Assembly (NCBI GenBank): GCA_029975435.1
Contig: JARKPC010000088.1
Coordinates: 1 to 64,000 of the forward strand
Origin: Propionivibrio sp.
Lineage (GTDB): Bacteria > Pseudomonadota > Gammaproteobacteria > Burkholderiales > Rhodocyclaceae
Direction: 5' to 3'
DNA length: 64,000 nucleotides
Shown: positions 51,583 to 64,000 of the stretch, one piece after another
How positions within the stretch are numbered: position 1 is the stretch's first letter
Layout of the letters: each line of letters begins with the position of its first letter
The notes under the pieces: generated by a model
The model's input: the letters and a program-made list of their open reading frames with translations, nothing else
Told to the model about the DNA's origin: nothing
The model's database searches: none
Position numbers and translations under genes: made by a program

Positions 51583-53229
51583 ATGGCCAAGGTTGTACCG
51601 GAAGGTTGGCGGGAATTGGCCGCCATCGGCGCCGTGTTGCGCGAAATCGAAACGCTGACCGTGCTGGCGGAGGGTCTTTCCGACGACTACACGATCTACC
51701 ACGGACTGCACTGGACCCGCATTCATCAGGGGTGTGCACTGGTCGGCGAAATCGATTTCGCCATCGTCACGTCGTCGGGGAGACTGCTGCTGATAGAGCA
51801 GAAATGCGGGTTCCTCAAGGAAACGCCGGAGGGACTGTGCAAGATGTACGGGGCAAAGGAGAAATCCATCCCGTTCCAGATCGGCCGCTCGATGGATGCC
51901 CTGCACAAGCGGCTCGGGAAAAGTTGTCCGGACGCGCAATACCATCTCGATTCACTACTATTCTGCCCGGACTATTCGGTCAAGGATCCCGGATCCGCCG
52001 GCATCGATCCGGCGCGCATCGTCGATGCCTCGCGGCGCGGCCAACTGGTGTCCATCGTCCGGAACATCCTGTCGCTCGAAGAATCGGCACATCCCAATAT
52101 CGACAAGCTGCATCGCTTTCTGGGCGACGAACTCAACCTGGTGCCCGACGTCCAGGCCATTGCGGGGCAGGCACGGACCCTATACACCCGGATTTCCGGG
52201 GGCCTGACCACCTGGGCACGCCAGATCGAGTGTGAACCGTTTCGCCTGCGCGTCATCGGTACCGCCGGCTCCGGAAAGACACAGCTGGCCCTCGCGGTCT
52301 TTCAGGATGCGCTGGCCGCGGGCCGTCGGGCGCTCTATGTCTGCTACAACCGGCCGCTGGCCGACCACGTCGCGCGCATTGCCCCCCGTGGCGGCGAGGT
52401 GGCGACCTACCATCAACTCGCTGACCGGATTCTGCGCGAGCGTGGAGAGGTTCCTGACTTCTCACAACCCGGCGCCTTCGGACGCCTCGAAGCGTTCATG
52501 GACACGCTTGAGCCGGGAGATCGCTGGTGTTTTGACGAACTCATCGTCGACGAAGGTCAGGATTTCAAGGAGAGCTGGAAGGACAACCTGCTCCGCCTGC
52601 TCCGTCCCGAGGGACGGGCCTGGTGGCTGGAAGACCCGATGCAGAATCTCTACGGGCGCCCTCCGGTGACCTTGCCCGGGTGGGTCACGCTCCGCTCGGA
52701 GGTCAATTACCGCAGCCCGCAGGATGTCCTCGAGCACCTGAACCGTTTTCTGTCCGAAACATACCAAATCTCGGCCGGCAGCCCGCTGACCGGATCGGAC
52801 GTCGAGATTCTGACCTACAACGGTACCGCGGACCTGATCACCCAGACCAAGCGGGCCATCACCGGTGGACTCGGTGCCGGTTTCAAGCGCGACATGATGG
52901 CGATCGTCACGTACCGAGGACGGGAGCACTCGTCCCTGACGCCTTACGACAAGCTCGGGACGTTTCCGTTACGCGCCTATACCGGCGAATACGATCTCTT
53001 CGGCAACCCTGTCTTCACCTCGGGCGACATCCTCATCGACTCGATCTACCGCTTCAAGGGTCAGTCAGCGCCTTGCATCGTCTTTACGGAAATCGACTTC
53101 GAGACATTCGATGAGTTGGTGTCGCGCAAGCTCTTCGTCGGCATGACCCGGGCGACGATGAAGCTGTTCCTGGTCATCTCGGAACGTTCCGCGCAGGCGC
53201 TGCTTCAGCGACTGGCCGGAGACGCGTAG
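51583..53229 (+). CDS. NERD-like nuclease domain fused to UvrD/DUF2075-like helicase
   Basis: GEIDFAIVTSSGRLLLIEQKCGFLKETPEGL; RVIGTAGSGKTQLAL; DELIVDEGQDFKESW; LFVGMTRATMKLFLV. Confidence 0.85.
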   Translation: MAKVVPEGWRELAAIGAVLREIETLTVLAEGLSDDYTIYHGLHWTRIHQGCALVGEIDFAIVTSSGRLLLIEQKCGFLKETPEGLCKMYGAKEKSIPFQIGRSMDALHKRLGKSCPDAQYHLDSLLFCPDYSVKDPGSAGIDPARIVDASRRGQLVSIVRNILSLEESAHPNIDKLHRFLGDELNLVPDVQAIAGQARTLYTRISGGLTTWARQIECEPFRLRVIGTAGSGKTQLALAVFQDALAAGRRALYVCYNRPLADHVARIAPRGGEVATYHQLADRILRERGEVPDFSQPGAFGRLEAFMDTLEPGDRWCFDELIVDEGQDFKESWKDNLLRLLRPEGRAWWLEDPMQNLYGRPPVTLPGWVTLRSEVNYRSPQDVLEHLNRFLSETYQISAGSPLTGSDVEILTYNGTADLITQTKRAITGGLGAGFKRDMMAIVTYRGREHSSLTPYDKLGTFPLRAYTGEYDLFGNPVFTSGDILIDSIYRFKGQSAPCIVFTEIDFETFDELVSRKLFVGMTRATMKLFLVISERSAQALLQRLAGDA

Positions 53230-53237
53230 CTCCGCCA

Positions 53238-54191
53238 CTAGGCGGCCTGGTTCTTGATGCCGTACGGCACGTGCCCGGTGGCCACGACATCGGCGGCGGG
53301 GCCGCAATGTCCCATCTGGTCGTCGAAAAAGATATCCGCGCCGAAGCCGTGGAGGAATGCCGCCTTTTCCTTGCCGGCGAGGAACAACAGTTCGTCGATC
53401 CGGATCTTCCAGTGGCGCAACGTCTTGATCACCCGCTCGTGCGCCGGGGCGCCACGGGCCGTAATCAACGCGGTACGAATCGGTGGATCATCGAGCGAGA
53501 ATTCCGACTGGAGCGAGTGCAGTGCCGTGAGGAAGGGCTTGAACGGTCCACCCGAAAGCGGGGTTTCCCGCGCCTCGATCTCATTCCTGTTGAACGCTTC
53601 CAGCCCGTCCGCCGAATACACGCGTTCGGCTTCGTCGGAAAACAGCACGGCGTCGCCGTCGAATGCGATCCGCAACTGCGCGTCCCCGTTCCGGTCACCC
53701 TTGGAAGGCAGGATCGTCGCGGCGGCAATGCCCGCCGCCACGGCGTTTTTCACGTCCTCCGAACTCGCCGAAAGAAACAGATGCGCACCAAAGGGACCAA
53801 CGTAGCGATAGGGCGCCACGCCGCGCGTGAACGCCGCGCGCGTGATATCCAGACCATGATGGTGAATCGAATTGAAAACGCGCAGGCCGGTATCGCCGCT
53901 GTTGCGCGATACGAGCACGACCTCCACCAGGCGCTTCCCGCGCTGGCCGTTGAGCGCGAGCAGTTTGCGAACCATCGGGAAAGCTACGCCGGGCGCGAGG
54001 GGAACATTCTCGTGCGCGATCTGATACCGCCCGTACGCATCCTCCCCTTGCTCAATGAAAACCTGATGACTTTCATCGAGATCAAACAGGGCGCGCGACG
54101 AGATGGCTACGACAAGCCTGACTCCGGAGGAGTCAGGCGCATTGACGGCATGAAGAGGATTTGGCACAGGGAACGAGGGCTGAGTTTTCAT
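53238..54191 (-). CDS. cytosolic 5'-nucleotidase family protein
   Basis: RLVVAISSRALFDLDESHQVF; RIAFDGDAVLFSDEAERVY; DELLFLAGKEKAAFLHGFGADIFFDDQMGH; start 54191. Confidence 0.88.
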   Translation of the reverse strand: MKTQPSFPVPNPLHAVNAPDSSGVRLVVAISSRALFDLDESHQVFIEQGEDAYGRYQIAHENVPLAPGVAFPMVRKLLALNGQRGKRLVEVVLVSRNSGDTGLRVFNSIHHHGLDITRAAFTRGVAPYRYVGPFGAHLFLSASSEDVKNAVAAGIAAATILPSKGDRNGDAQLRIAFDGDAVLFSDEAERVYSADGLEAFNRNEIEARETPLSGGPFKPFLTALHSLQSEFSLDDPPIRTALITARGAPAHERVIKTLRHWKIRIDELLFLAGKEKAAFLHGFGADIFFDDQMGHCGPAADVVATGHVPYGIKNQAA

Positions 54192-54212
54192 GGTTGGAAT
54201 ACTACCTGCAAT

Positions 54213-54233
54213 AAGGCTCACCACATGAGCCTT
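54213..54233. promoter_or_regulatory. family A operator candidate, site 3
   Basis: AAGGCTCA-CCACA-TGAGCCTT, perfect 8-bp arms, 22 bp upstream of the 5'-nucleotidase start. Confidence 0.68.
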
Positions 54234-54447
54234 GCGGACAGCAGAGAACAGTTCCAAACGGCACGCCGGATGCGCAAACTTGGTACAGATCCGGCCGTAT
54301 GGAAACGCAATAACCAGGTATTCCTCCGGACAAATCCCCACAGGAGAAGCGATTCGCGCCACAGGAAATATTTCCAGAAATTTGTTCCCGCGCCTATTTC
54401 CGGTTGTTAACCTTCGTTCCGTCGAACATCAATCAAGGACAAACAAG

Positions 54448-55722
54448 ATGGAACGGAACATGTTTATGCGATTCTCAGCCGCCCTGAAGCGCTTGGGCCG
54501 GGACGGAGTTGGGGCGCCAGAGTTCAGCCTTGGCAAGGAGGGAAAATATAGCCTCCAGTACATCCCCTTCGAGCACGTCAACCTCGCCGCAACGCTCGTC
54601 ATTGTCGGGATTACACCAGGGAACAATCAGCTTGATCTTGCGTATCAGACGGCACAAGAGTTGCTGAAATCCGGGCGGCCTGTTGACGAAATTCTCGTTG
54701 AGATTAAGAAGACAGGGGCCTTTGGTGGGAAGTCAATGAAGCCAAATTTGCTGAAGATGCTTCGGCACTTCCGTTTCGAGAAGCTGCTGGGTATTGACGA
54801 CGTTGAGTCGTTGTGGGGGTCGAACGCGGGGCTTCTTCATTCAACTTCGGTGATTCCTCATGCAGCCTTCAAAGACGGCGAGCGGTTCAACGGTGACTTC
54901 GACGAAATCATGGCGTCTCCGTTACTTGAAAAGTGCTTTCGCGACTGCTTTGTCGCTTCTGTGCGTGAAATCACCGGAAAGGCATTATTCGTGGCCCTTG
55001 GTCCGTGCCCGGAGGCGGCACTGGATTGGTGCATCAAGGAAGGTGCTCTTCGGCAAGAACAGGTGCTCGGCTCTTTCTGCCATCCTTCAACGGCCGGTGG
55101 AAGCACCACCCGCTATTACCTCCGTGAAGTGACGAAGGACCAGCTTGATGCGAAGAACCCCGTACGCCATCGCTGTGACTGGCTTGACCACGCATACGAG
55201 CAGATGCGCTCTTCGACATCTGCATTGCTAGGAGTGAATTACCAGGCTCCTGTAGCAACCCGACGGATCACGGCTCCGGTTGTTGCAACGCCGGTCACCA
55301 CAACCAGCGCAACGAAATCGACCACCGTGAAACCGACTACCCGTACTTCGGCGACCACCGACGCTGACATTGCAACGATCCTGAATGAAGTCGAACGAGC
55401 TGGCTACAGGTCGACCAACACGACCAAAAAGCTCTCGGAGTTTCAGTCTCCCGCAGGCCAGACGATCTATGTCGTTAAGACAACCTCTAAATTGAACAAT
55501 ATCAACCTGATGGTGCACCCCGGCCACAAGCTGGAGGTTCTGAAATCGATTGACGGTGTTGATTCGGTTAGTGACGGCCATCGGTTTCACGCGAATATGA
55601 CCAGATTTCCGAAGCGCATCAACAAGGGGGAGTCGCAAACAGCATTTGGCTGGCAGTTGAGCATCGCAACTTTATCTGATCTTCCTCGCTTCTTGGCTGC
55701 GTTCCAGTCAATCGGTTTCTGA
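54448..55722 (+). CDS. uracil-DNA glycosylase-superfamily-like domain fused through a Thr/Ala linker to an uncharacterised C-terminal domain
   Basis: LVIVGITPGNNQLDLAY; LLHSTSVIPHAAFKDGERF; FVALGPCPEAALDW; VLGSFCHPSTAGGSTTRYYL; linker PVVATPVTTTSATKSTTVKPTTRTSATTDAD. Confidence 0.7.
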   Translation: MERNMFMRFSAALKRLGRDGVGAPEFSLGKEGKYSLQYIPFEHVNLAATLVIVGITPGNNQLDLAYQTAQELLKSGRPVDEILVEIKKTGAFGGKSMKPNLLKMLRHFRFEKLLGIDDVESLWGSNAGLLHSTSVIPHAAFKDGERFNGDFDEIMASPLLEKCFRDCFVASVREITGKALFVALGPCPEAALDWCIKEGALRQEQVLGSFCHPSTAGGSTTRYYLREVTKDQLDAKNPVRHRCDWLDHAYEQMRSSTSALLGVNYQAPVATRRITAPVVATPVTTTSATKSTTVKPTTRTSATTDADIATILNEVERAGYRSTNTTKKLSEFQSPAGQTIYVVKTTSKLNNINLMVHPGHKLEVLKSIDGVDSVSDGHRFHANMTRFPKRINKGESQTAFGWQLSIATLSDLPRFLAAFQSIGF

Positions 55723-56455: not shown

Positions 56456-57433
56456 ATGAACCAGACGGAACGCTTCTACAAGATCGACCAGATGCTCCAC
56501 GACCGGGGCGTGGTTTCCTTCCAGACGTTGATGGACGAGCTGGAAGTCTCCCGGGCCACCCTGAAGCGTGATCTCGCTTATCTCCGCGACCGGCTCAACG
56601 CCCCGATCGTTCATGATCGCGACGCCGGCGGATATCGTTTCGACCCCACGTCCAAGCAGATTGGCGGCCAATACGAATTGCCGGGATTATGGTTTTCTGC
56701 GGAGGAAATCCATGCCCTCCTCACCATGCAGCACTTGTTGGCGAACCTGGACACCGGCGGGCTGCTTGGGCCACACATCAAGCCGCTGCTTTCCCGGCTA
56801 ACCGCGCTGATCGGCGTAGCCGACAACCCGGCCGATGAAGTCGTCAAGCGCATCCGCATCCTGACCGTCGGCGCCCGGCAGCTTCATCTCGACAACTTCC
56901 AAGTGATTGGCTCGGCGCTGTTGCGCCGCAAACGGCTGATCATCCGTTACCACGCCCGTGGTACCGACAAGATCACCGAGCGGGAGATTTCCCCACAGCG
57001 GCTGATCCATTACCGCGACAACTGGTATCTCGACGCCTGGTGCCATCTGCGCGAGGAATTGCGCAGCTTCTCTGTCGATGCAATCAAGCGCGTCGAATTG
57101 CTGGAGAGCAAAGCCAAGGATGTGGCAGAGAAACACCTCAACGAAGTGCTCGGTTCCGGTTACGGGATATTTTCCGGGAAGGACGTGAAATGGGCGACCT
57201 TGCGGTTCTCTCCAAAACGGGCGCGCTGGGTGGCAGCGGAGAAATGGCATCCGAAGCAGGAAGGAAGAATGCTCGACGACGGCTCCTACGAACTCAGCGT
57301 ACCGTATAGCAAGGATCCGGAACTGCTGATGGATATCCTCAAATACGGGGCAGATTGCGAGGTAGTGAAACCAGAGGGCTTGAAGAAAACAATTGAAGCA
57401 GAGTTGAAGAGATTGGTGCGGTTGTACGAGTGA
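56456..57433 (+). CDS. WYL-domain transcriptional regulator 2
   Basis: MNQTERFYKIDQMLHDRGVVSFQTLMDELEVSRATLKRDLAYLRDRLNAPI; RRKRLIIRYHARGTDKITEREISPQRLIHYRDNWYLDAWCHLREELRSFSVDAI. Confidence 0.93.
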   Translation: MNQTERFYKIDQMLHDRGVVSFQTLMDELEVSRATLKRDLAYLRDRLNAPIVHDRDAGGYRFDPTSKQIGGQYELPGLWFSAEEIHALLTMQHLLANLDTGGLLGPHIKPLLSRLTALIGVADNPADEVVKRIRILTVGARQLHLDNFQVIGSALLRRKRLIIRYHARGTDKITEREISPQRLIHYRDNWYLDAWCHLREELRSFSVDAIKRVELLESKAKDVAEKHLNEVLGSGYGIFSGKDVKWATLRFSPKRARWVAAEKWHPKQEGRMLDDGSYELSVPYSKDPELLMDILKYGADCEVVKPEGLKKTIEAELKRLVRLYE

Positions 57434-57464
57434 CTACTGACACCGAAACAATTGGAGCAACCGC

Positions 57465-57515
57465 ATGAAGAGATACTACCGATTCATCCTGGGCAGCCAA
57501 GGCCACTATGAGTGA
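57465..57515 (+). pseudogene. 16-codon ORF resembling the N-terminus of Mrr-like restriction endonucleases
   Basis: MKRYYRFILGSQGHYE*, hand-translated; its stop overlaps the DUF262 start. Confidence 0.3.
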
Positions 57516-59274
57516 ATCCCACATCTGTTTGAAGACGGTCTATGGGCTACGAGTTGACGAATCCGACGACTCCATCCGTTACCACATTCCTGCGTATCAA
57601 CGCGGTTACCGTTGGACCCCGACGCAGGTGACGCAACTGCTGGACGACATCAGAGAGTTCACCAGGCGCGAGAATCCCCGGCCAGAAGAGTTCTACTGCC
57701 TCCAGCCTCTGGTCCTTCGAGCGAACAACGACGGCGCCTACGAGGTGGTGGATGGTCAGCAACGCCTGACAACACTGCTCCTAATCTTGCGCCATTTCAA
57801 TGAACGTCTCGCTGTCCGCTACCAGCAGAAGCTTTACCGACTGGAGTATCAGACGCGACCTGATCTCTACGGCTTTCTCGACAATCCCTCGCCAACGCAA
57901 GCCGCATCAAACATCGACTTCTTTCACATCGACCAAGCGGTAAAGACAATCTCAGACTGGTTCGAGAAGCGGGAAAGCGAGGTCGAGGCGATCAAGGATG
58001 CGTTTCTCAACAAAGCCAAAGTCATCTGGTTTCAACTGTCGTCGGGCGAGAATGCCGTGGCCGCCTTCACGCGACTCAATGTTGGAAAGATACCCCTGAC
58101 GAATGGTGAACTGATCCGGGCTCTTTTCCTGAAACGGGGAAAGAGTGGGCCGGTGGAACCGCTGCAACTCAGGATCGCCCACGAATGGGATGCCATAGAA
58201 AAGACCCTGCAGGGCGGCGAGTTCTGGTGTTTTCTGAGCAACGACACGAAGCGGACCGGTGGCCGAATCGATTTCCTTTTCGACCTGGTAGCGCGACAGG
58301 ATGGGATGGAATCGAGCGCCGACGAATACGCGACTTTCAATCACTTCAGCGAAAAACTCACTAGAAAGGATGCTGATCTCGAAGCGGAGTGGCTCTCCGT
58401 GAAAAGAACATTCATGGTTCTCGAAGAGTGGTTCGTGGATCGCCGCCTTTACCACTTGGTGGGTTTCCTGATTTGGGCGGGAGTGGATGTCAATGAACTG
58501 CGGGTGTTAGCCGTCGGGGCTACCAAGCGCGAATTCAAAGAGAAGCTCAGAGCGCAAGTATTCGAGCGCACGTTCGGCGTTAAGGCCGATGTACCCGTCA
58601 CGGCAGAATGGATTGCAGACCAATTGGACGGAATGAACTATAGCCCCGGTTCTGGGCGTATTCGAGGCATCCTGCTGCTGTTCAACTTGGCGACGCTGCT
58701 CCAGAACGCACAGTCCAATATGAGATTCCAATTTGACAGCTTCAAGACGGCCATGTGGGACATCGAGCATGTGCGTTCCGTAGCTCCAGATCGGCCCGGC
58801 GCCCGAAAAGGGCAAGTCGAATGGCTGGAGCGATGCATGGGGTATCTGAAATCAACCGTCGAATCAACCGACGAAACATCCGACCTTCAGGCTGACATTC
58901 AGGCATACATCAACCTTCCCGCCAAGGAGGCAACTGATGCCGCCTTTGATCCCGTGTACGAAAAGGTTCTACGCCACTTTCAGGAAAGTGATACGGACGA
59001 GGAAGACAACGGCATATTCAATCTCGTTCTCCTCGACTATGCGACAAACCGAAGCTACAAAAACGCCGTATTTGCAGTAAAGCGTCATCGGATTCTATCG
59101 CTCGATCGGGACGGGGTGTTCGTTCCCTTATGTACCCGAAACGTGTTTTTGAAATGCTACAACGCGCAAGTTGATCACGTCATGTTCTGGACACGGAGGG
59201 ATCGCGACGGTTACCGGCAGGCACTGATCGATATTTTGCATGGTTTCTTTGCCGGGGGATGGATTCATGGATGA
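57508..59274 (+). CDS. DUF262 + DUF1524 (GmrSD-like) protein
   Basis: YHIPAYQRGYRWTPTQVTQLLDDI; YEVVDGQQRLTTLLLILRH; WDIEHV ... FNLVLLDYATNRSYKNAVFAVKR; GVFVPLCTRNVFLKCYN. Confidence 0.85.
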   Translation: MSESHICLKTVYGLRVDESDDSIRYHIPAYQRGYRWTPTQVTQLLDDIREFTRRENPRPEEFYCLQPLVLRANNDGAYEVVDGQQRLTTLLLILRHFNERLAVRYQQKLYRLEYQTRPDLYGFLDNPSPTQAASNIDFFHIDQAVKTISDWFEKRESEVEAIKDAFLNKAKVIWFQLSSGENAVAAFTRLNVGKIPLTNGELIRALFLKRGKSGPVEPLQLRIAHEWDAIEKTLQGGEFWCFLSNDTKRTGGRIDFLFDLVARQDGMESSADEYATFNHFSEKLTRKDADLEAEWLSVKRTFMVLEEWFVDRRLYHLVGFLIWAGVDVNELRVLAVGATKREFKEKLRAQVFERTFGVKADVPVTAEWIADQLDGMNYSPGSGRIRGILLLFNLATLLQNAQSNMRFQFDSFKTAMWDIEHVRSVAPDRPGARKGQVEWLERCMGYLKSTVESTDETSDLQADIQAYINLPAKEATDAAFDPVYEKVLRHFQESDTDEEDNGIFNLVLLDYATNRSYKNAVFAVKRHRILSLDRDGVFVPLCTRNVFLKCYNAQVDHVMFWTRRDRDGYRQALIDILHGFFAGGWIHG

Positions 59275-61660
59275 AATCAATCAACCCATCACATTTCGTC
59301 AGCTTCTGAGCAAGTGCCCTCGAATCGAGGTGCCGTTGATCCAAAGGGATTACGCGCAGGGCCGTGAGTCGGAGAAAGAGGTACGACAGCACTTTCTCAA
59401 AGCTCTCCATGCCGCATTAATTCTGGAATCCGGGGATTCCGGGCCGCCGCTTAATCTGGACTTCGTCTATGGCAGCATGGAGAATGGAGCCTCGGGGAGC
59501 TTTCTTCCGCTGGATGGACAGCAGCGTCTGACCACACTGTTCCTGTTGCACTGGTATCTAGCATGGCGTGATGACCAACATTCCCAATTCAAACGCTTGC
59601 TATGGGATGGTCGGCATGCAAGGTTCACTTATGGCGTTCGGCCCAGCAGTACAGAATTTTTCGATGAACTGGTGCAATACGCACCAGATTCTGCACCGGA
59701 AGACGTGCCAACACTCAGACTGATGGTGGAAGATCGGCCGTGGTTCTTCTCGCATTGGCGCCTTGATCCGACTATTCAATCGGCTCTCGTAATGCTAGAG
59801 GACATACACTACCTATTCAAACCAACAGCAGGACTCTTTAAGCGTCTGACGAATGATGAACGGCCGGCGATCACCTTTCAGCTCTTGCCATTGGAGCATT
59901 TCGGTCTGACCGACGATCTCTACATCAAGATGAATGCGCGGGGGAAGCCTCTCACACCATTTGAAACCTTTAAGGCTCGATTCGAGGAACTTTTGATCGA
60001 ACTGTTTCCGACTGAGAAGAGAACGTTGGGCGATGGAGAGGTAAGTGTCGCTGAGTTCTTCGAACGACGCATTGACACTCGGTGGACTGATTTCTTCTGG
60101 GCCCACAAGAACGCGAAGACCAACACGTTCGATGACTTAGTCATCAATCTTCTTCTGGCGTTGGCTCGTGTGAGTCTGGATCCGTCAAACCCTAACTTCA
60201 ATCAAGACACATCGGCACTAGGCGACAAGCAACTCAGCGGAACATTTGCACTGTTTCACGAGCGCGGCTGGCTGACCCGCGGCTTCGCTGAAAACCTAAT
60301 CGTCCTTCTGGAAGCATGGAGCATTAGCGGTGGCAAGCAAGCCCCCGTATTGCCGAACTCTAGATACTTCGATGAAGCGGCATTGTTCCTGAAAGCCATA
60401 CAACAACCAGCGGCACTTGATTACACGGAGCTGGTTCAGTTTGCAGCGCTCGTGTTCTACCTTCGGCACCACGAAGGAAACGTACAGCCAATTGACCTGA
60501 AGGAATGGATGCGCGTTGTTCGCAACCTTTCAGCTAATACCGCAATCGAGCGACCGGAAGAGTATGGGCGCAGCCTTACGGGGCTGACCAAGCTCTTGCC
60601 TCATAGCCACCGAATACTTGAGTACCTATCCACTGAGGCTGTTGGTCCGATCGGCTTTAGCCCTCAGCAGGTCCGTGAGGAAGTTCTCAAGGCAAAACTG
60701 ATTCTCGCTGATGCCGCTTGGAGAGACCGCATTGATCGAGCGGAAGAGCATGGCTACTTTTTCGGGCAGATTGAATTCCTTCTGGATTTCTGTGGCGTGC
60801 TTGCGCATCCGGAGAAAGACCCAACAAAGTGGGGGAATACCGTTCACGCGAACCTGCAAACCGAATTTGATTTGTATCTTAGAAAGGCACAAATTACTTT
60901 TGGCTCGTCCGGCCTTGCACTTACCAAGCCGGCCGCAGGAGAGCACTTGTGGAAAAGGGCATTGCTGGCCATCGGGGACTATTTGCTTTCAAACGGTAGC
61001 AACAGCTCATTTCTTACCGATCCGCCATCAAATTGGGATAGCTGGAAAAGATTGCTGCGAGGTGATGATGGAAAGCGCACATACCTCAAGGCCCTTTGGG
61101 ATCGCTTAGCCCATGATGCCGACATTGAGCCGCAACTGAATGACGTCATTAAGTCCGCTACAGACCTGGAACCGTGGCGTGCCATTATTGTTGGCACTCC
61201 AGAGGTGATCACCTACTGTGGCTTGCAGAAAATTCGTCGTGAGGTTTGTTCCGAGGAAATATACCTCCTTAATAAGACGCAAATGAATGGGAATCACGCG
61301 GAATTGTTCAGTTATGGTCTTTACCTTGACTTGGGCAAGCTAGGTGTCGACCACGAATTGAGTGCGTTGGCCTCGAGGTACTACGAATCGGTTTCTACAA
61401 CCGACGCGGAACCGCGGCTCGTGTTCAGGCCAGAATGCGCCGGACAGCGCCTCAAGATTGCAGTCGAGTCTTCAAATGGGCAGTTTCTAGTTTGTGTTAG
61501 TCGATCGGAATTAGCCAGCCTTCCCGAGTTGGCGACTGCATTGCGCGACGATGTAGGTCTCGATGAACAATTTGGGACTTTAAGCCGGCGTGTGTTACGT
61601 GCTGACATTCACGAGGTACTGCGCCAGGTAGCAAGTACCCTGCAAAAGTTTTCAACCTGA
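59240..61660 (+). CDS. DUF262 domain protein
   Basis: RIEVPLIQRDYAQGRESEKEVRQHFLKAL; FLPLDGQQRLTTLFLLHWYLAWRD; overlaps the first DUF262 gene. An in-frame start at 59267 (MDEINQPITFRQL) is likely. Confidence 0.85.
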   Translation: MVSLPGDGFMDEINQPITFRQLLSKCPRIEVPLIQRDYAQGRESEKEVRQHFLKALHAALILESGDSGPPLNLDFVYGSMENGASGSFLPLDGQQRLTTLFLLHWYLAWRDDQHSQFKRLLWDGRHARFTYGVRPSSTEFFDELVQYAPDSAPEDVPTLRLMVEDRPWFFSHWRLDPTIQSALVMLEDIHYLFKPTAGLFKRLTNDERPAITFQLLPLEHFGLTDDLYIKMNARGKPLTPFETFKARFEELLIELFPTEKRTLGDGEVSVAEFFERRIDTRWTDFFWAHKNAKTNTFDDLVINLLLALARVSLDPSNPNFNQDTSALGDKQLSGTFALFHERGWLTRGFAENLIVLLEAWSISGGKQAPVLPNSRYFDEAALFLKAIQQPAALDYTELVQFAALVFYLRHHEGNVQPIDLKEWMRVVRNLSANTAIERPEEYGRSLTGLTKLLPHSHRILEYLSTEAVGPIGFSPQQVREEVLKAKLILADAAWRDRIDRAEEHGYFFGQIEFLLDFCGVLAHPEKDPTKWGNTVHANLQTEFDLYLRKAQITFGSSGLALTKPAAGEHLWKRALLAIGDYLLSNGSNSSFLTDPPSNWDSWKRLLRGDDGKRTYLKALWDRLAHDADIEPQLNDVIKSATDLEPWRAIIVGTPEVITYCGLQKIRREVCSEEIYLLNKTQMNGNHAELFSYGLYLDLGKLGVDHELSALASRYYESVSTTDAEPRLVFRPECAGQRLKIAVESSNGQFLVCVSRSELASLPELATALRDDVGLDEQFGTLSRRVLRADIHEVLRQVASTLQKFST

Positions 61661-61669
61661 TTGCTGACC

Positions 61670-61807
61670 ATGCATGAACTATCCCGCTCCAAAAGCAAGA
61701 CGCAAAACCGCGTCATCGACCGTATCCACCGACAAAACGCGGCCCGACCGGCTGAGCTATTTGAGCCGGTTCTTCCAAGACCAATAGCAGCCGCCAATTC
61801 GCAGTGA
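61670..61807 (+). CDS. small ORF (45 aa) between DUF262 and dam
   Basis: MHELSRSKSKTQNRVIDRIHRQNAARPAELFEPVLPRPIAAANSQ*; GTGA overlap with the dam start. Confidence 0.4.
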   Translation: MHELSRSKSKTQNRVIDRIHRQNAARPAELFEPVLPRPIAAANSQ

Positions 61808-62637
61808 AAAATAGTACAACTCTCATTCCGTTTCTCAAGTGGGCAGGAGGAAAACGCTGGTTTGTACAGCGGCACGCCGATTTGCTCCCCCAAAGCTTCA
61901 ATCGTTACATCGAGCCTTTTCTTGGTGGTGGTTCCGTTTTCTTCAGCCTACAACCGGATAATGCAATACTAGGTGATACAAACCCGGATCTGATTGCCAC
62001 GTACCGTGGAATTAAAGAGAAATGGCAGAGCGTTGTCAGAAGTTTGCAGTATCACAATCAGCAACATTCTGACGCTCATTACTACAAGATACGCGATGCG
62101 AAACCGAGACATGATTTTCAGCGCGCTTCGCGCATGATCTATCTCAATCGGACATGTTTCAACGGAATTTATCGGGTAAATCAGCGAGGCGAATTCAATG
62201 TGCCGCGAGGAACCAAGAACTCGGTTCTGCTCGATACGGACAATTTCGAACAGATGTCGAGACTGCTCAAAGGAGCAGATATTCGCGTGGCCGACTTTGC
62301 AGCGTTAATCAGTGAAGCGAAAGCAGGAGATTTTATCTTCGCCGATCCGCCTTACACGGTACGGCACAATTTCAATGGTTTCGTGAAATACAACGAAAAA
62401 CTGTTTAGCTGGAGCGACCAAGAGCGCTTGGCAGAAGCTCTATATTGGGCAAAGCGAAGAGGTGTAAACATTGTGGCTACCAATGCTAATCATCCTTCTG
62501 TCCGAGATCTCTATGAAGATTGTGGATTCAAGTTAATCACCACATCGCGATACTCATCAATCTCGGCACTGCCGGAACATAGAAAGCAGTTTGACGAACT
62601 CATTATTTCCTTCAACGCGAGTGATAACCAGCCATGA
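61804..62637 (+). CDS. dam: DNA adenine methyltransferase (Dam family)
   Basis: GTG start; PFLKWAGGKRW; YIEPFLGGGSVFFSL; FADPPYTVRHNFNGFVKYNEKLFSW. Confidence 0.93.
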   Translation: MKNSTTLIPFLKWAGGKRWFVQRHADLLPQSFNRYIEPFLGGGSVFFSLQPDNAILGDTNPDLIATYRGIKEKWQSVVRSLQYHNQQHSDAHYYKIRDAKPRHDFQRASRMIYLNRTCFNGIYRVNQRGEFNVPRGTKNSVLLDTDNFEQMSRLLKGADIRVADFAALISEAKAGDFIFADPPYTVRHNFNGFVKYNEKLFSWSDQERLAEALYWAKRRGVNIVATNANHPSVRDLYEDCGFKLITTSRYSSISALPEHRKQFDELIISFNASDNQP

Positions 62638-64000
62638 CAGATCTCTTTCAGATGGTCAATGCTACGGCAATCCAGAATAATCCAATCGAGGCTTTGCGAA
62701 CTTTTCTTGATCGTGAGGCAGGCGTAGAAGCAGCCCGTCAAGTCGACAAAATGCGCTTCGTTGGCTACGTCTTGGAATTAGGCTACGACACCGCGAAGAT
62801 CATTACCAGCGACCCGTACAAACTTGCCGTTGGAGGAATTCCGCGCGGATCATTTTTGATCATGACACCTGTGAGTGCCGGGAGTGCGCCTCCACATTTC
62901 ACTTTGCTCCGGGTAACTGGCGTATCACCAACGCCTTTGAGCAATCAAGTGCAACAGACATATTTTGAACTCCACAAAAAGTCGATGCCGGAACTCGACC
63001 GTTGGACGCAAAGCGAACTCCAGTGGGGGGCCCTAGATTGTGATGTCCTGGGTATGTTCTATGCGGACCCAACCAATATGCAGCGACTAGCGTTTTCCGG
63101 TGATGTGAATAACGTCGTTAGTGCTCATCGCTACAAGGTGTTCGCTCCAGATGAGGCCCTGCTGAAGGTCATCGTCAACGGCACAGTAAAGCCAGAGCAG
63201 CAATTTGAGATTGGAAGGCTGCGAACAATGGAATGCGGCCTTTCTAGTAATGGCGGTGTTAGCAATATCCCGGTGAGTATTTCAATCCGTGACTTTCGTG
63301 GCTGCCGAACGGCCATGTTCGGAAAGACCAGGCTCGGCAAGTCCAATGTTGTTAAGCTGATTGCTCAGGGGTTTCTTGAAGCGACAAAGCCTGAGCGCAA
63401 TGTGGGGCAGCTAATTTTCGATATCAATGGAGAGTATGCTAATGACAATCCGCAAGATGGAAACAAGTCAATACGATCGGCGTATAAAGATAGTTGCCAT
63501 GTTTATGCTCTAACCAAGCGAGAGGGTACAGATTCGAAACCTCTTCGCCTAAACTTTTATGAGCAGCCAGATTCGTGCATTTCGGTCATTGCCTCTTTGC
63601 TGCTGCAGGATAGCCGAACGTCGATTTATATCAAGGGATTCTCCAGTGTTGAATTACCGTCAATAGCATCGATACTTGCTAAACCTATAGAGGCAAGAGA
63701 CCGCGATGTGAGAAAAATTCAGATCTACTGGGCAATACTTAAGAAAGGCGGTTTCGTTGAGAATGCTACACGCCTAAAACAACTCGGACTAAGAGGTGCC
63801 AACGCCTACAATTTCACTCCTTCATTTAGCAAGGCATTGCGTGAAGCAGCCTACAAATTCGCTGACATTGATTCTCCTCCAGAGCACCCTCAGTCGTTAG
63901 CCGAATTGGTGGCGGAGTTAGAGGTAATAGCCGCGTTTGCAGCTGAGAAACCTAAAGACAAAGCGCTGAACTCGACTGGGTCAGGCGAGCCTATTCTTGA
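62634..64000 (+). CDS. HerA/DUF87-type ATPase, truncated by the window end
   Basis: ATGA overlap with dam; 455 codons open to the window end; Walker A MFGKTRLGKSNVVKLIAQ, Walker B QLIFDINGEYAND; absent from the ORF track. Confidence 0.82.
   Translation, partial: MTDLFQMVNATAIQNNPIEALRTFLDREAGVEAARQVDKMRFVGYVLELGYDTAKIITSDPYKLAVGGIPRGSFLIMTPVSAGSAPPHFTLLRVTGVSPTPLSNQVQQTYFELHKKSMPELDRWTQSELQWGALDCDVLGMFYADPTNMQRLAFSGDVNNVVSAHRYKVFAPDEALLKVIVNGTVKPEQQFEIGRLRTMECGLSSNGGVSNIPVSISIRDFRGCRTAMFGKTRLGKSNVVKLIAQGFLEATKPERNVGQLIFDINGEYANDNPQDGNKSIRSAYKDSCHVYALTKREGTDSKPLRLNFYEQPDSCISVIASLLLQDSRTSIYIKGFSSVELPSIASILAKPIEARDRDVRKIQIYWAILKKGGFVENATRLKQLGLRGANAYNFTPSFSKALREAAYKFADIDSPPEHPQSLAELVAELEVIAAFAAEKPKDKALNSTGSGEPIL

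What the first reader, a model, noticed from the sequence alone, without database searches (positions are those of the whole stretch)
56456..64000. WYL - DUF262/DUF1524 - DUF262 - sORF - Dam - HerA: candidate composite anti-phage system
Co-directional genes with start/stop overlaps join a GmrSD-like pair (DGQQR in both; HNH-type EH...N...N residues in the first) to an adenine methyltransferase and a HerA translocase, preceded by a WYL regulator. Established knowledge: GmrSD and SspE DUF262 proteins are modification-sensing nucleases, HerA ATPases power several defence complexes, and WYL proteins often control BREX/CBASS-like loci. I do not recognise this exact set as a named system, and it continues past the window.
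Basis: partly seen in the sequence, partly recalled or inferred. Interest (0 to 1): 0.78.

Follow-up and report, generated by a model that had tools for sequence, protein, structure and literature searches.

The report
Dam-HerA-NurA restriction cassette beside a GrwAB-like pair
The supposed six-gene anti-phage system is two unrelated defence units that happen to sit side by side: an already described type of two-gene enzyme pair that attacks modified phage DNA, and a rare three-gene unit, also carried by prophages, in which a DNA-marking enzyme replaces the sulphur-marking enzyme of a known translocating DNA shredder.

Summary
The genes are real, but the proposed composite is not. In relatives, dam-herA-nurA is a compact, co-evolving operon in several bacterial phyla and in proviruses. 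The DUF262 pair was absent from all 23 loci with the HerA/NurA genes. Conversely, the DUF262 pair occurs alone in six other loci, none with dam, herA or nurA. Its gene order and catalytic residues match GrwAB, a two-gene modification-dependent restriction system published in 2025. The WYL gene is a 92% paralogue of one beside a type I-F-like cas operon in the same genome. The small ORF is not conserved.

The interesting part is dam-herA-nurA. Its HerA and NurA are closest, among solved structures, to TdpA and TdpB, the phage-DNA-degrading pair of the phosphorothioation system TdpABC. The modification gene here is instead an M.DpnII-like adenine methylase (predicted GATC). I infer a restriction-modification-like defence in which m6A replaces phosphorothioate as the self mark. 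No paper found describes it; function is untested. DNA donation, as with Thermus TdtA-NurA, is the main rival.

The parts
56456..57433 (+). WYL-domain transcriptional regulator (HTH_11 + WYL + WCX); probably a local regulator, not a conserved part of either module
   Evidence: Pfam WYL 3e-21, WCX 6.5e-16; 92% identical paralogue next to a cas operon on contig C105
57508..59274 (+). GrwA-like protein, 588 aa: DUF262 (GmrSD_N) NTPase/sensor + C-terminal DUF1524 His-Me nuclease
   Evidence: GmrSD_N 5.8e-32, GmrSD_C 2.2e-4; invariant DGQQR 82-86, E420 H421, N505, N514 in six homologues; best PDB profile hits are DUF262 protein 9jfl (4.8e-14) and SspE (2.9e-12)
59267..61660 (+). GrwB-like protein, 797 aa: DUF262 + long C-terminal region of unknown fold; overlaps the previous gene by 8 bases
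   Evidence: GmrSD_N 2.5e-17; DGQQR invariant in six homologues; always directly downstream of the GrwA-like gene in the six other loci
61804..62637 (+). Dam-family adenine-N6 methyltransferase, 277 aa, predicted GATC (M.DpnII-like); first gene of the three-gene module
   Evidence: MethyltransfD12 3.1e-48; TIGR00571 dam 3.8e-67; best solved relative M.DpnII 2dpm 1.1e-51; invariant DPPY 181-184 and NG.YRVN..G.FNVP
62634..64000 (+). HerA/TdpA-like DNA translocase; runs past the window edge to contig 64628 (664 aa in all). The third operon gene, a NurA/TdpB-like nuclease (447 aa, 4-Cys zinc ribbon), lies wholly outside the window at contig C131 64639-65982
   Evidence: HerA: DUF87 2.9e-12; profile closest to TdpA 8wet 8.4e-37, next HerA 3.5e-16; Walker A GKTRLGKS and Walker B YFEEAH. 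NurA; AlphaFold2 model pLDDT 73.8, pTM 0.76; Foldseek best matches TdpB 8wfd_G 4.5e-8 and 8wet_G, then HerA-NurA and NurA entries; relatives annotated NurA on plasmids

Best explanation
The stretch holds two independent defence modules with a WYL regulator in front. (1) A GrwAB-like type IV restriction pair (57508-61660): both DUF262 domains sense modified phage DNA and hydrolyse nucleotide, and the His-Me nuclease of the first protein cuts. (2) A three-gene operon dam-herA-nurA (61804 to contig 65982). The most likely mechanism of the second: the M.DpnII-like methylase marks host GATC sites with m6A; a HerA/TdpA-like hexamer loads on and pumps along DNA without the mark; the NurA/TdpB-like nuclease docked on it degrades both strands, so unmarked phage or plasmid DNA is destroyed. 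Shown: gene content, families, conserved catalytic residues, operon conservation and co-evolution, closest structural relatives, presence in proviruses. Inferred: GATC specificity, HerA-NurA complex formation, anti-phage activity, and that m6A is what protects self DNA.
For: Two modules: reciprocal absence in 23 HerA/NurA-bearing and 6 DUF262-pair loci. dam-herA-nurA in the same order with gaps of -32 to +20 bases in 13 loci, with correlated distances (Mantel r 0.55-0.85, at most 1 of 5000 permutations reaching it). HerA closest to TdpA; NurA model closest to TdpB. Methylase closest to M.DpnII, the methylase of a GATC restriction-modification system. The methylase class is exchanged while HerA-NurA stays: D12/Dam here, another D12 class in a Vibrio phage, PF01555 in Deferribacter and Halorarius plasmids, as expected of a self-mark enzyme. 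Provirus position: between CI repressor and integrase in L026, right behind the integrase in the Vibrio phage. Thermococcus HerA-NurA degrades both strands of dsDNA and was proposed to be antiviral (PMC12977600). No PAPS-reductase-family gene on the window's contig, and none at all in four genomes that carry the operon. GrwAB match: order, domains and residues (PMC12137116).
Against: No experiment. The TdpABC mechanism is recalled from memory; its paper is not in the held library. HerA/TdpA translocases are thought to contact the backbone, so it is unclear how a base methyl group would be read. No target-recognition domain was found in HerA or NurA, so sequence-specific restriction is not evident. 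In Thermus, a HerA-like TdtA, a NurA-like protein and a PF01555 methylase serve DNA donation, and the methylase is nearly dispensable. Three cyanobacterial plasmids carry HerA-NurA without an annotated methylase (that gene table is incomplete). Flanks of the operon are only partly defence-like. The module is rare (1 of 399 Pseudomonadota genomes, its own).
Confidence: 0.66

Rival explanations
1. dam-herA-nurA is a DNA-donation or transfer module like the TdtA-NurA-methylase operon of the Thermus element ICETh1: HerA pumps host DNA out or processes transfer intermediates, NurA trims ends, and the methylase is accessory.
For: Same three kinds of gene (HerA/FtsK-family ATPase, NurA-like, DNA methylase) in the ICETh1 operon, with NurA and TdtA needed for DNA donation. 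The window's operon lies in a contig with a tyrosine integrase 9 kb further on.
Against: ICETh1 also needs a type IIG restriction enzyme, absent here; its methylase is another class and nearly dispensable. The operon recurs as a compact cassette in tailed-phage proviruses, where a donation role is hard to see. Closest solved relatives are the anti-phage TdpAB.
Confidence: 0.12
2. HerA-NurA is a DNA-end-resection or repair complex acquired by transfer, and Dam is a co-transcribed regulatory methylase.
For: Archaeal and Deinococcus HerA-NurA are described in DNA end processing (literature).
Against: No mre11/rad50 beside it; sporadic presence; phage and plasmid carriage; methylase exchange; the archaeal complex does not make 3' overhangs in the 2026 study.
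Confidence: 0.08
3. The nuclease attacks methylated rather than unmethylated DNA, or the cassette serves phage-versus-phage exclusion in which Dam chiefly protects the carrying phage's own genome.
For: Presence in proviruses and near a terminase gene (L026, L034, L037).
Against: Most copies found are in bacterial genome contigs rather than viral ones; a co-encoded methylase that condemned its own host's DNA would be lethal.
Confidence: 0.1
4. One reading: WYL, both DUF262 proteins, sORF, Dam and HerA form one composite defence system.
For: Close spacing and common strand in this contig; GmrSD-type enzymes can be embedded in other restriction loci (PMC11411939).
Against: Reciprocal absence in 29 loci; no conserved sORF; the module is complete without the pair in 12 other loci.
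Confidence: 0.04

Closest known systems
TdpABC (phosphorothioation defence system; TdpAB structures 8wet, 8wfd, 8y1k)
   Same: HerA-type translocase and NurA-type nuclease encoded with a DNA-modifying enzyme; both proteins have TdpA/TdpB as nearest solved relatives
   Different: The modification gene is a Dam-family adenine methylase, not a sulphur-incorporating TdpC; no PAPS-reductase-family gene on this contig; TdpA similarity is concentrated in the ATPase halves
GrwAB of Vibrio cholerae (two-gene GmrSD-like restriction, PMC12137116)
   Same: First gene DUF262+DUF1524, second gene DUF262 plus unknown domains; DGQQR in both; His-Me residues H/N/N with the same 9-residue spacing between the two Asn (GrwA H431/N521/N530, here H421/N505/N514)
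TgvAB (PMC11411939)
   Same: Two DUF262 proteins, one with DUF1524
   Different: Gene order reversed; TgvA and GrwB are stated to differ outside DUF262
ICETh1 DNA secretion operon of Thermus thermophilus (TTC1877-1880; PMC5365140)
   Same: NurA-like nuclease, HerA/FtsK-family TdtA and a DNA methylase in one operon
   Different: Contains a type IIG enzyme; PF01555 methylase; works in DNA donation; different gene order
Archaeal and Deinococcus HerA-NurA
   Same: Same two families, adjacent genes
   Different: No methylase; no mre11/rad50 here; closest structural match is TdpB rather than these
DpnII-type restriction-modification
   Same: Methylase is closest to M.DpnII (GATC)
   Different: No site-specific endonuclease; a translocase and nuclease take its place

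Membership tests
TdpABC | TdpA: hexameric HerA-family translocase | tested here: met
   Profile against PDB: TdpA 8.4e-37, next best 3.5e-16; family only, the hexamer itself was not tested
TdpABC | TdpB: NurA-fold nuclease working with TdpA | tested here: met
   Model best match TdpB in TdpAB, E 4.5e-8, probability 1.00; fold only, complex formation not tested
TdpABC | Adjacent phosphorothioate-synthesising TdpC | tested here: not met
   Its place is taken by Dam; no PF01507 gene on contig C131, and none in four genomes with the operon. That TdpC would be caught by PF01507 is from memory
TdpABC | Phosphorothioate in host DNA | not testable with these tools
   Needs chemical or sequencing assay
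GrwAB | Two-gene operon, DUF262+DUF1524 first, DUF262+unknown second | tested here: met
   description
GrwAB | DGQQR in both proteins and His-Me H...N...N in the first | tested here: met
   Invariant in six homologues
GrwAB | Sequence homology of both proteins to V. cholerae GrwA/GrwB | not tested
   V. cholerae sequences were not in the collections searched
GrwAB | Restriction of phages with modified bases | not testable with these tools
   Plaque assays needed
TgvAB | DUF262-only gene upstream of the DUF262+DUF1524 gene | tested here: not met
   Order reversed here and in six homologous loci
ICETh1 DNA secretion operon | HerA/FtsK-family ATPase + NurA-like + methylase | tested here: met
   operon described
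ICETh1 DNA secretion operon | Type IIG restriction enzyme required for donation | tested here: not met
   No such gene in the three-gene operon here or conserved beside it in relatives
Type II restriction-modification | Methylase with a cognate site-specific endonuclease | tested here: not met
   Methylase present (M.DpnII-like); the nuclease is NurA-type and no other nuclease gene is conserved beside it
Archaeal-type HerA-NurA end-resection complex | herA and nurA adjacent, with mre11-rad50 (thermophilic archaea) | tested here: not met
   herA-nurA adjacent, but no mre11/rad50 next to it in the window's contig
   0 of 23 and 0 of 6 loci

The most novel reading that the evidence does not exclude
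A class of restriction-modification in which a TdpAB-like HerA-NurA translocating nuclease is gated by adenine methylation at GATC instead of phosphorothioation, within a wider set where the same shredder is paired with interchangeable DNA-marking enzymes (TdpC, Dam-type, other D12, PF01555 methylases), carried by chromosomes, plasmids and prophages across bacterial phyla and at least one archaeon.
Probability: 0.5. Interest if true: 0.75.

Novelty: new variant of a known kind. Interest (0 to 1): 0.6.

Why it matters
TdpAB is understood (recalled, not read here) to be inhibited by phosphorothioate on the DNA it translocates. If the same kind of machine is held off by a base methyl group, a DNA pump of the HerA family must be able to read two chemically unrelated self marks, or a separate sensing step is missing from current models. 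That is directly testable in E. coli, because a dam+ host already carries the predicted mark and a dam deletion does not. The result also separates a published type of system (GrwAB) from an undescribed one, and shows that gene adjacency in a defence island is not evidence of a composite system.

Tried and rejected
Composite system: rejected by reciprocal absence. Conserved sORF upstream of dam: none. TgvAB as the closest relative of the DUF262 pair: replaced by GrwAB because of gene order. NurA by sequence alone: Pfam and PDB profile searches of the window's protein found nothing. Viral structure library: no significant match. PADLOC: no model for the NurA protein, only generic HerA and methylase models. 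Flanking-gene tally for defence enrichment: a few type III and type IV restriction genes among 64 neighbours, many housekeeping genes; inconclusive. Promoter/terminator scan: about as many as chance. Profile surveys of 399 Pseudomonadota genomes: only the own genome. Literature for Zac and for TdpABC: nothing relevant in the library. SXT-family ICE and hypersaline-pond papers mentioning HerA: unrelated.
Full report
WHAT IS THERE. The window is bases 1-64000 of a 76,990-base contig (C131) of a 4.39 Mb, 292-contig, 82% complete genome (contig length). The WYL gene has WYL, WCX and HTH domains. The first DUF262 protein has GmrSD_N and a sub-threshold GmrSD_C; the second has GmrSD_N only; then a D12 adenine methylase and a DUF87/HerA protein. 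The remaining contig was fetched. HerA is 664 aa, ending at 64628. It is followed 10 bases later by a 447-aa ORF (64639-65982) with no Pfam match of its own. Further on, on the other strand, lie a helicase, a PLD-domain protein and a 417-aa protein, then an integrase.

TWO MODULES, NOT ONE. A scan of GTDB species genomes with the 447-aa protein gave 14 loci; two scans of viral contigs added three. Wherever an intact nurA has enough DNA upstream, the order is dam-herA-nurA, in Pseudomonadota, Bacteroidota and Bacillota and in proviruses. Two truncated nurA remnants (L020, L021) lack the rest. Spacing is tight (-32 to +20 bases between genes) and pairwise distances of the three proteins are correlated over 13 loci (Mantel r 0.69, 0.55, 0.85; at most 1 of 5000 permutations). 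The DUF262 pair was found in two genomes of the same class and on plasmids of Chryseobacterium, Paenisporosarcina, Paraburkholderia and Rhodococcus. Six-frame comparison of all queries against both sets shows no DUF262 homologue in the 23 HerA/NurA loci and no dam, herA or nurA in the six pair loci. So the two are neighbours by chance, or by shared residence in a defence island.

THE DUF262 PAIR IS GrwAB-LIKE. A 2025 study of V. cholerae (PMC12137116) describes GrwAB. GrwA has DUF262 and DUF1524 and comes first; GrwB has DUF262 plus domains of unknown function. Mutation of GrwA R81, H431, N521, N530 or GrwB R86 abolished defence, and targets carry hypermodified bases. The window's pair has the same order and domains. 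DGQQR is invariant in both, and H421, N505, N514 are invariant in the first, with the same nine-residue spacing between the asparagines. TgvAB (PMC11411939) has the opposite order. Direct sequence comparison with GrwAB was not possible, so this is a strong assignment by architecture, not by alignment.

THE DAM-HERA-NURA OPERON. The methylase's closest solved relative is M.DpnII (1.1e-51), then E. coli Dam. DPPY and the NG.YRVN..G.FNVP stretch are invariant in 12 copies. From general knowledge of EcoDam, Arg124 and Pro134 in this stretch contact GATC; this is the basis for predicting GATC. HerA keeps Walker A (GKTRLGKS) and Walker B (YFEEAH). Against the PDB, the HerA profile matches TdpA best (8.4e-37; next 3.5e-16), with long near-identical runs around AKEG...STQSP...QTEN. 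The 447-aa protein aligns at 22-26% with proteins annotated NurA on cyanobacterial and Deferribacter plasmids. One of these passes the Pfam NurA cut-off. D67, E240, D268-G-P-L, and four cysteines are nearly or fully conserved (Met-less numbering). A structure model built from 15 sequences (pLDDT 73.8, pTM 0.76) has TdpB as its top two matches, followed by HerA-NurA complexes and NurA. TM-scores are moderate (0.4-0.6), so this is a family-level, not subfamily-level, statement.

MARK EXCHANGE AND MOBILITY. The same HerA-NurA family occurs with a different D12 methylase in a Vibrio phage (integrase, HerA in two ORFs, NurA, methylase on the other strand). It occurs with PF01555 methylases on a Deferribacter megaplasmid and an archaeal Halorarius plasmid, and without an annotated methylase on three cyanobacterial plasmids. 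In provirus L026 the operon lies between a CI-type repressor and the integrase, a usual place for cargo defence genes. No PAPS-reductase-family gene lies on the window's contig, and four genomes with the operon have none at all. So a phosphorothioate partner is unlikely there, on the assumption (memory) that TdpC would belong to that family.

HOW IT MOST LIKELY WORKS. By analogy with TdpABC (recalled from memory; the paper is not in the library), HerA would encircle and pump DNA, NurA would degrade both strands, and the host's mark would stop the machine on self DNA. Here the mark would be m6A at GATC. A 2026 study found that Thermococcus HerA-NurA degrades both strands and proposed an antiviral role (PMC12977600). 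The weak point is how a base methyl is read. The main rival is DNA donation, as in Thermus ICETh1, where NurA and TdtA are required and the methylase nearly dispensable (PMC5365140, PMC7767461). Provirus carriage, the TdpAB match and the R-M type methylase favour defence.

WYL AND sORF. The WYL gene has an 87% DNA-identical, 92% protein-identical copy next to ORFs that read as a type I-F-like cas operon on contig C105 (my reading; not run through a CRISPR typer). It is not fixed to either module elsewhere. The sORF is not conserved.

NOVELTY AND LIMITS. No paper found in ten library searches describes a methylase-HerA-NurA defence operon, but most subscription literature is absent, including the TdpABC paper, so prior description cannot be excluded. 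The operon is rare: 14 loci in 84,980 species genomes by peptide-pattern scan (limited sensitivity), and only the own genome among 399 Pseudomonadota genomes by profile. I file it as a new variant of a known kind.

Noticed in passing
contig C131 66157-72853 (L003 4558-11254), minus strand: Three-gene cluster: 417-aa protein of unknown family, PLD-domain protein (PADLOC ZacB 2e-18) and SNF2/DEAD helicase (ZacC 1.6e-28, DISARM DrmD-like 3.5e-27), convergent with nurA; looks like a further defence system.
   Followed up: partly
L004 (contig C105 42000-60000), 1707-11134 minus strand: ORFs that read as a type I-F-like cas operon (cas1, cas2-3, csy-like genes) with an array-like stretch at its end, preceded by a WYL gene 92% identical to the one in the window.
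   Followed up: partly
L034 1309-3502 (Vibrio phage 10N.286.54.E5_PE002): The HerA homologue is split into two overlapping ORFs; a second Vibrio phage also matches in two pieces. Frameshift, decay or recoding is undecided.
   Followed up: no
L028 2126-5924 (Deferribacter megaplasmid): The HerA gene is interrupted by an IS200/IS605 element with TnpB.
   Followed up: no
L032 4204-5935 (Paraburkholderia plasmid pSYMBR3459): The GrwA-like gene is broken into two ORFs, with IS21-family genes further on; the pair is probably inactive there.
   Followed up: no
L037 591-11000 (IMG/VR contig): Viral contig with a ParB-methyltransferase fusion, terminase large subunit and the dam-herA-nurA operon.
   Followed up: partly
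window 51583-53229: NERD-like/UvrD-like helicase (PADLOC RTasNERD-Hel 5.8e-18) upstream; no reverse transcriptase was looked for.
   Followed up: no
window 54289-55719: 477-aa protein without a Pfam match next to a 5'-nucleotidase (53238-54362, PF06189).
   Followed up: no
contig C105 784-1536 (L039): A second, distant Dam-like methylase (27% identity) elsewhere in the same genome; it could complicate a methylation test in the native host.
   Followed up: no
L020 9983-10813 and L021 10023-10853: Truncated nurA remnants without herA or dam, in Peptococcaceae and Paenibacillus.
   Followed up: no
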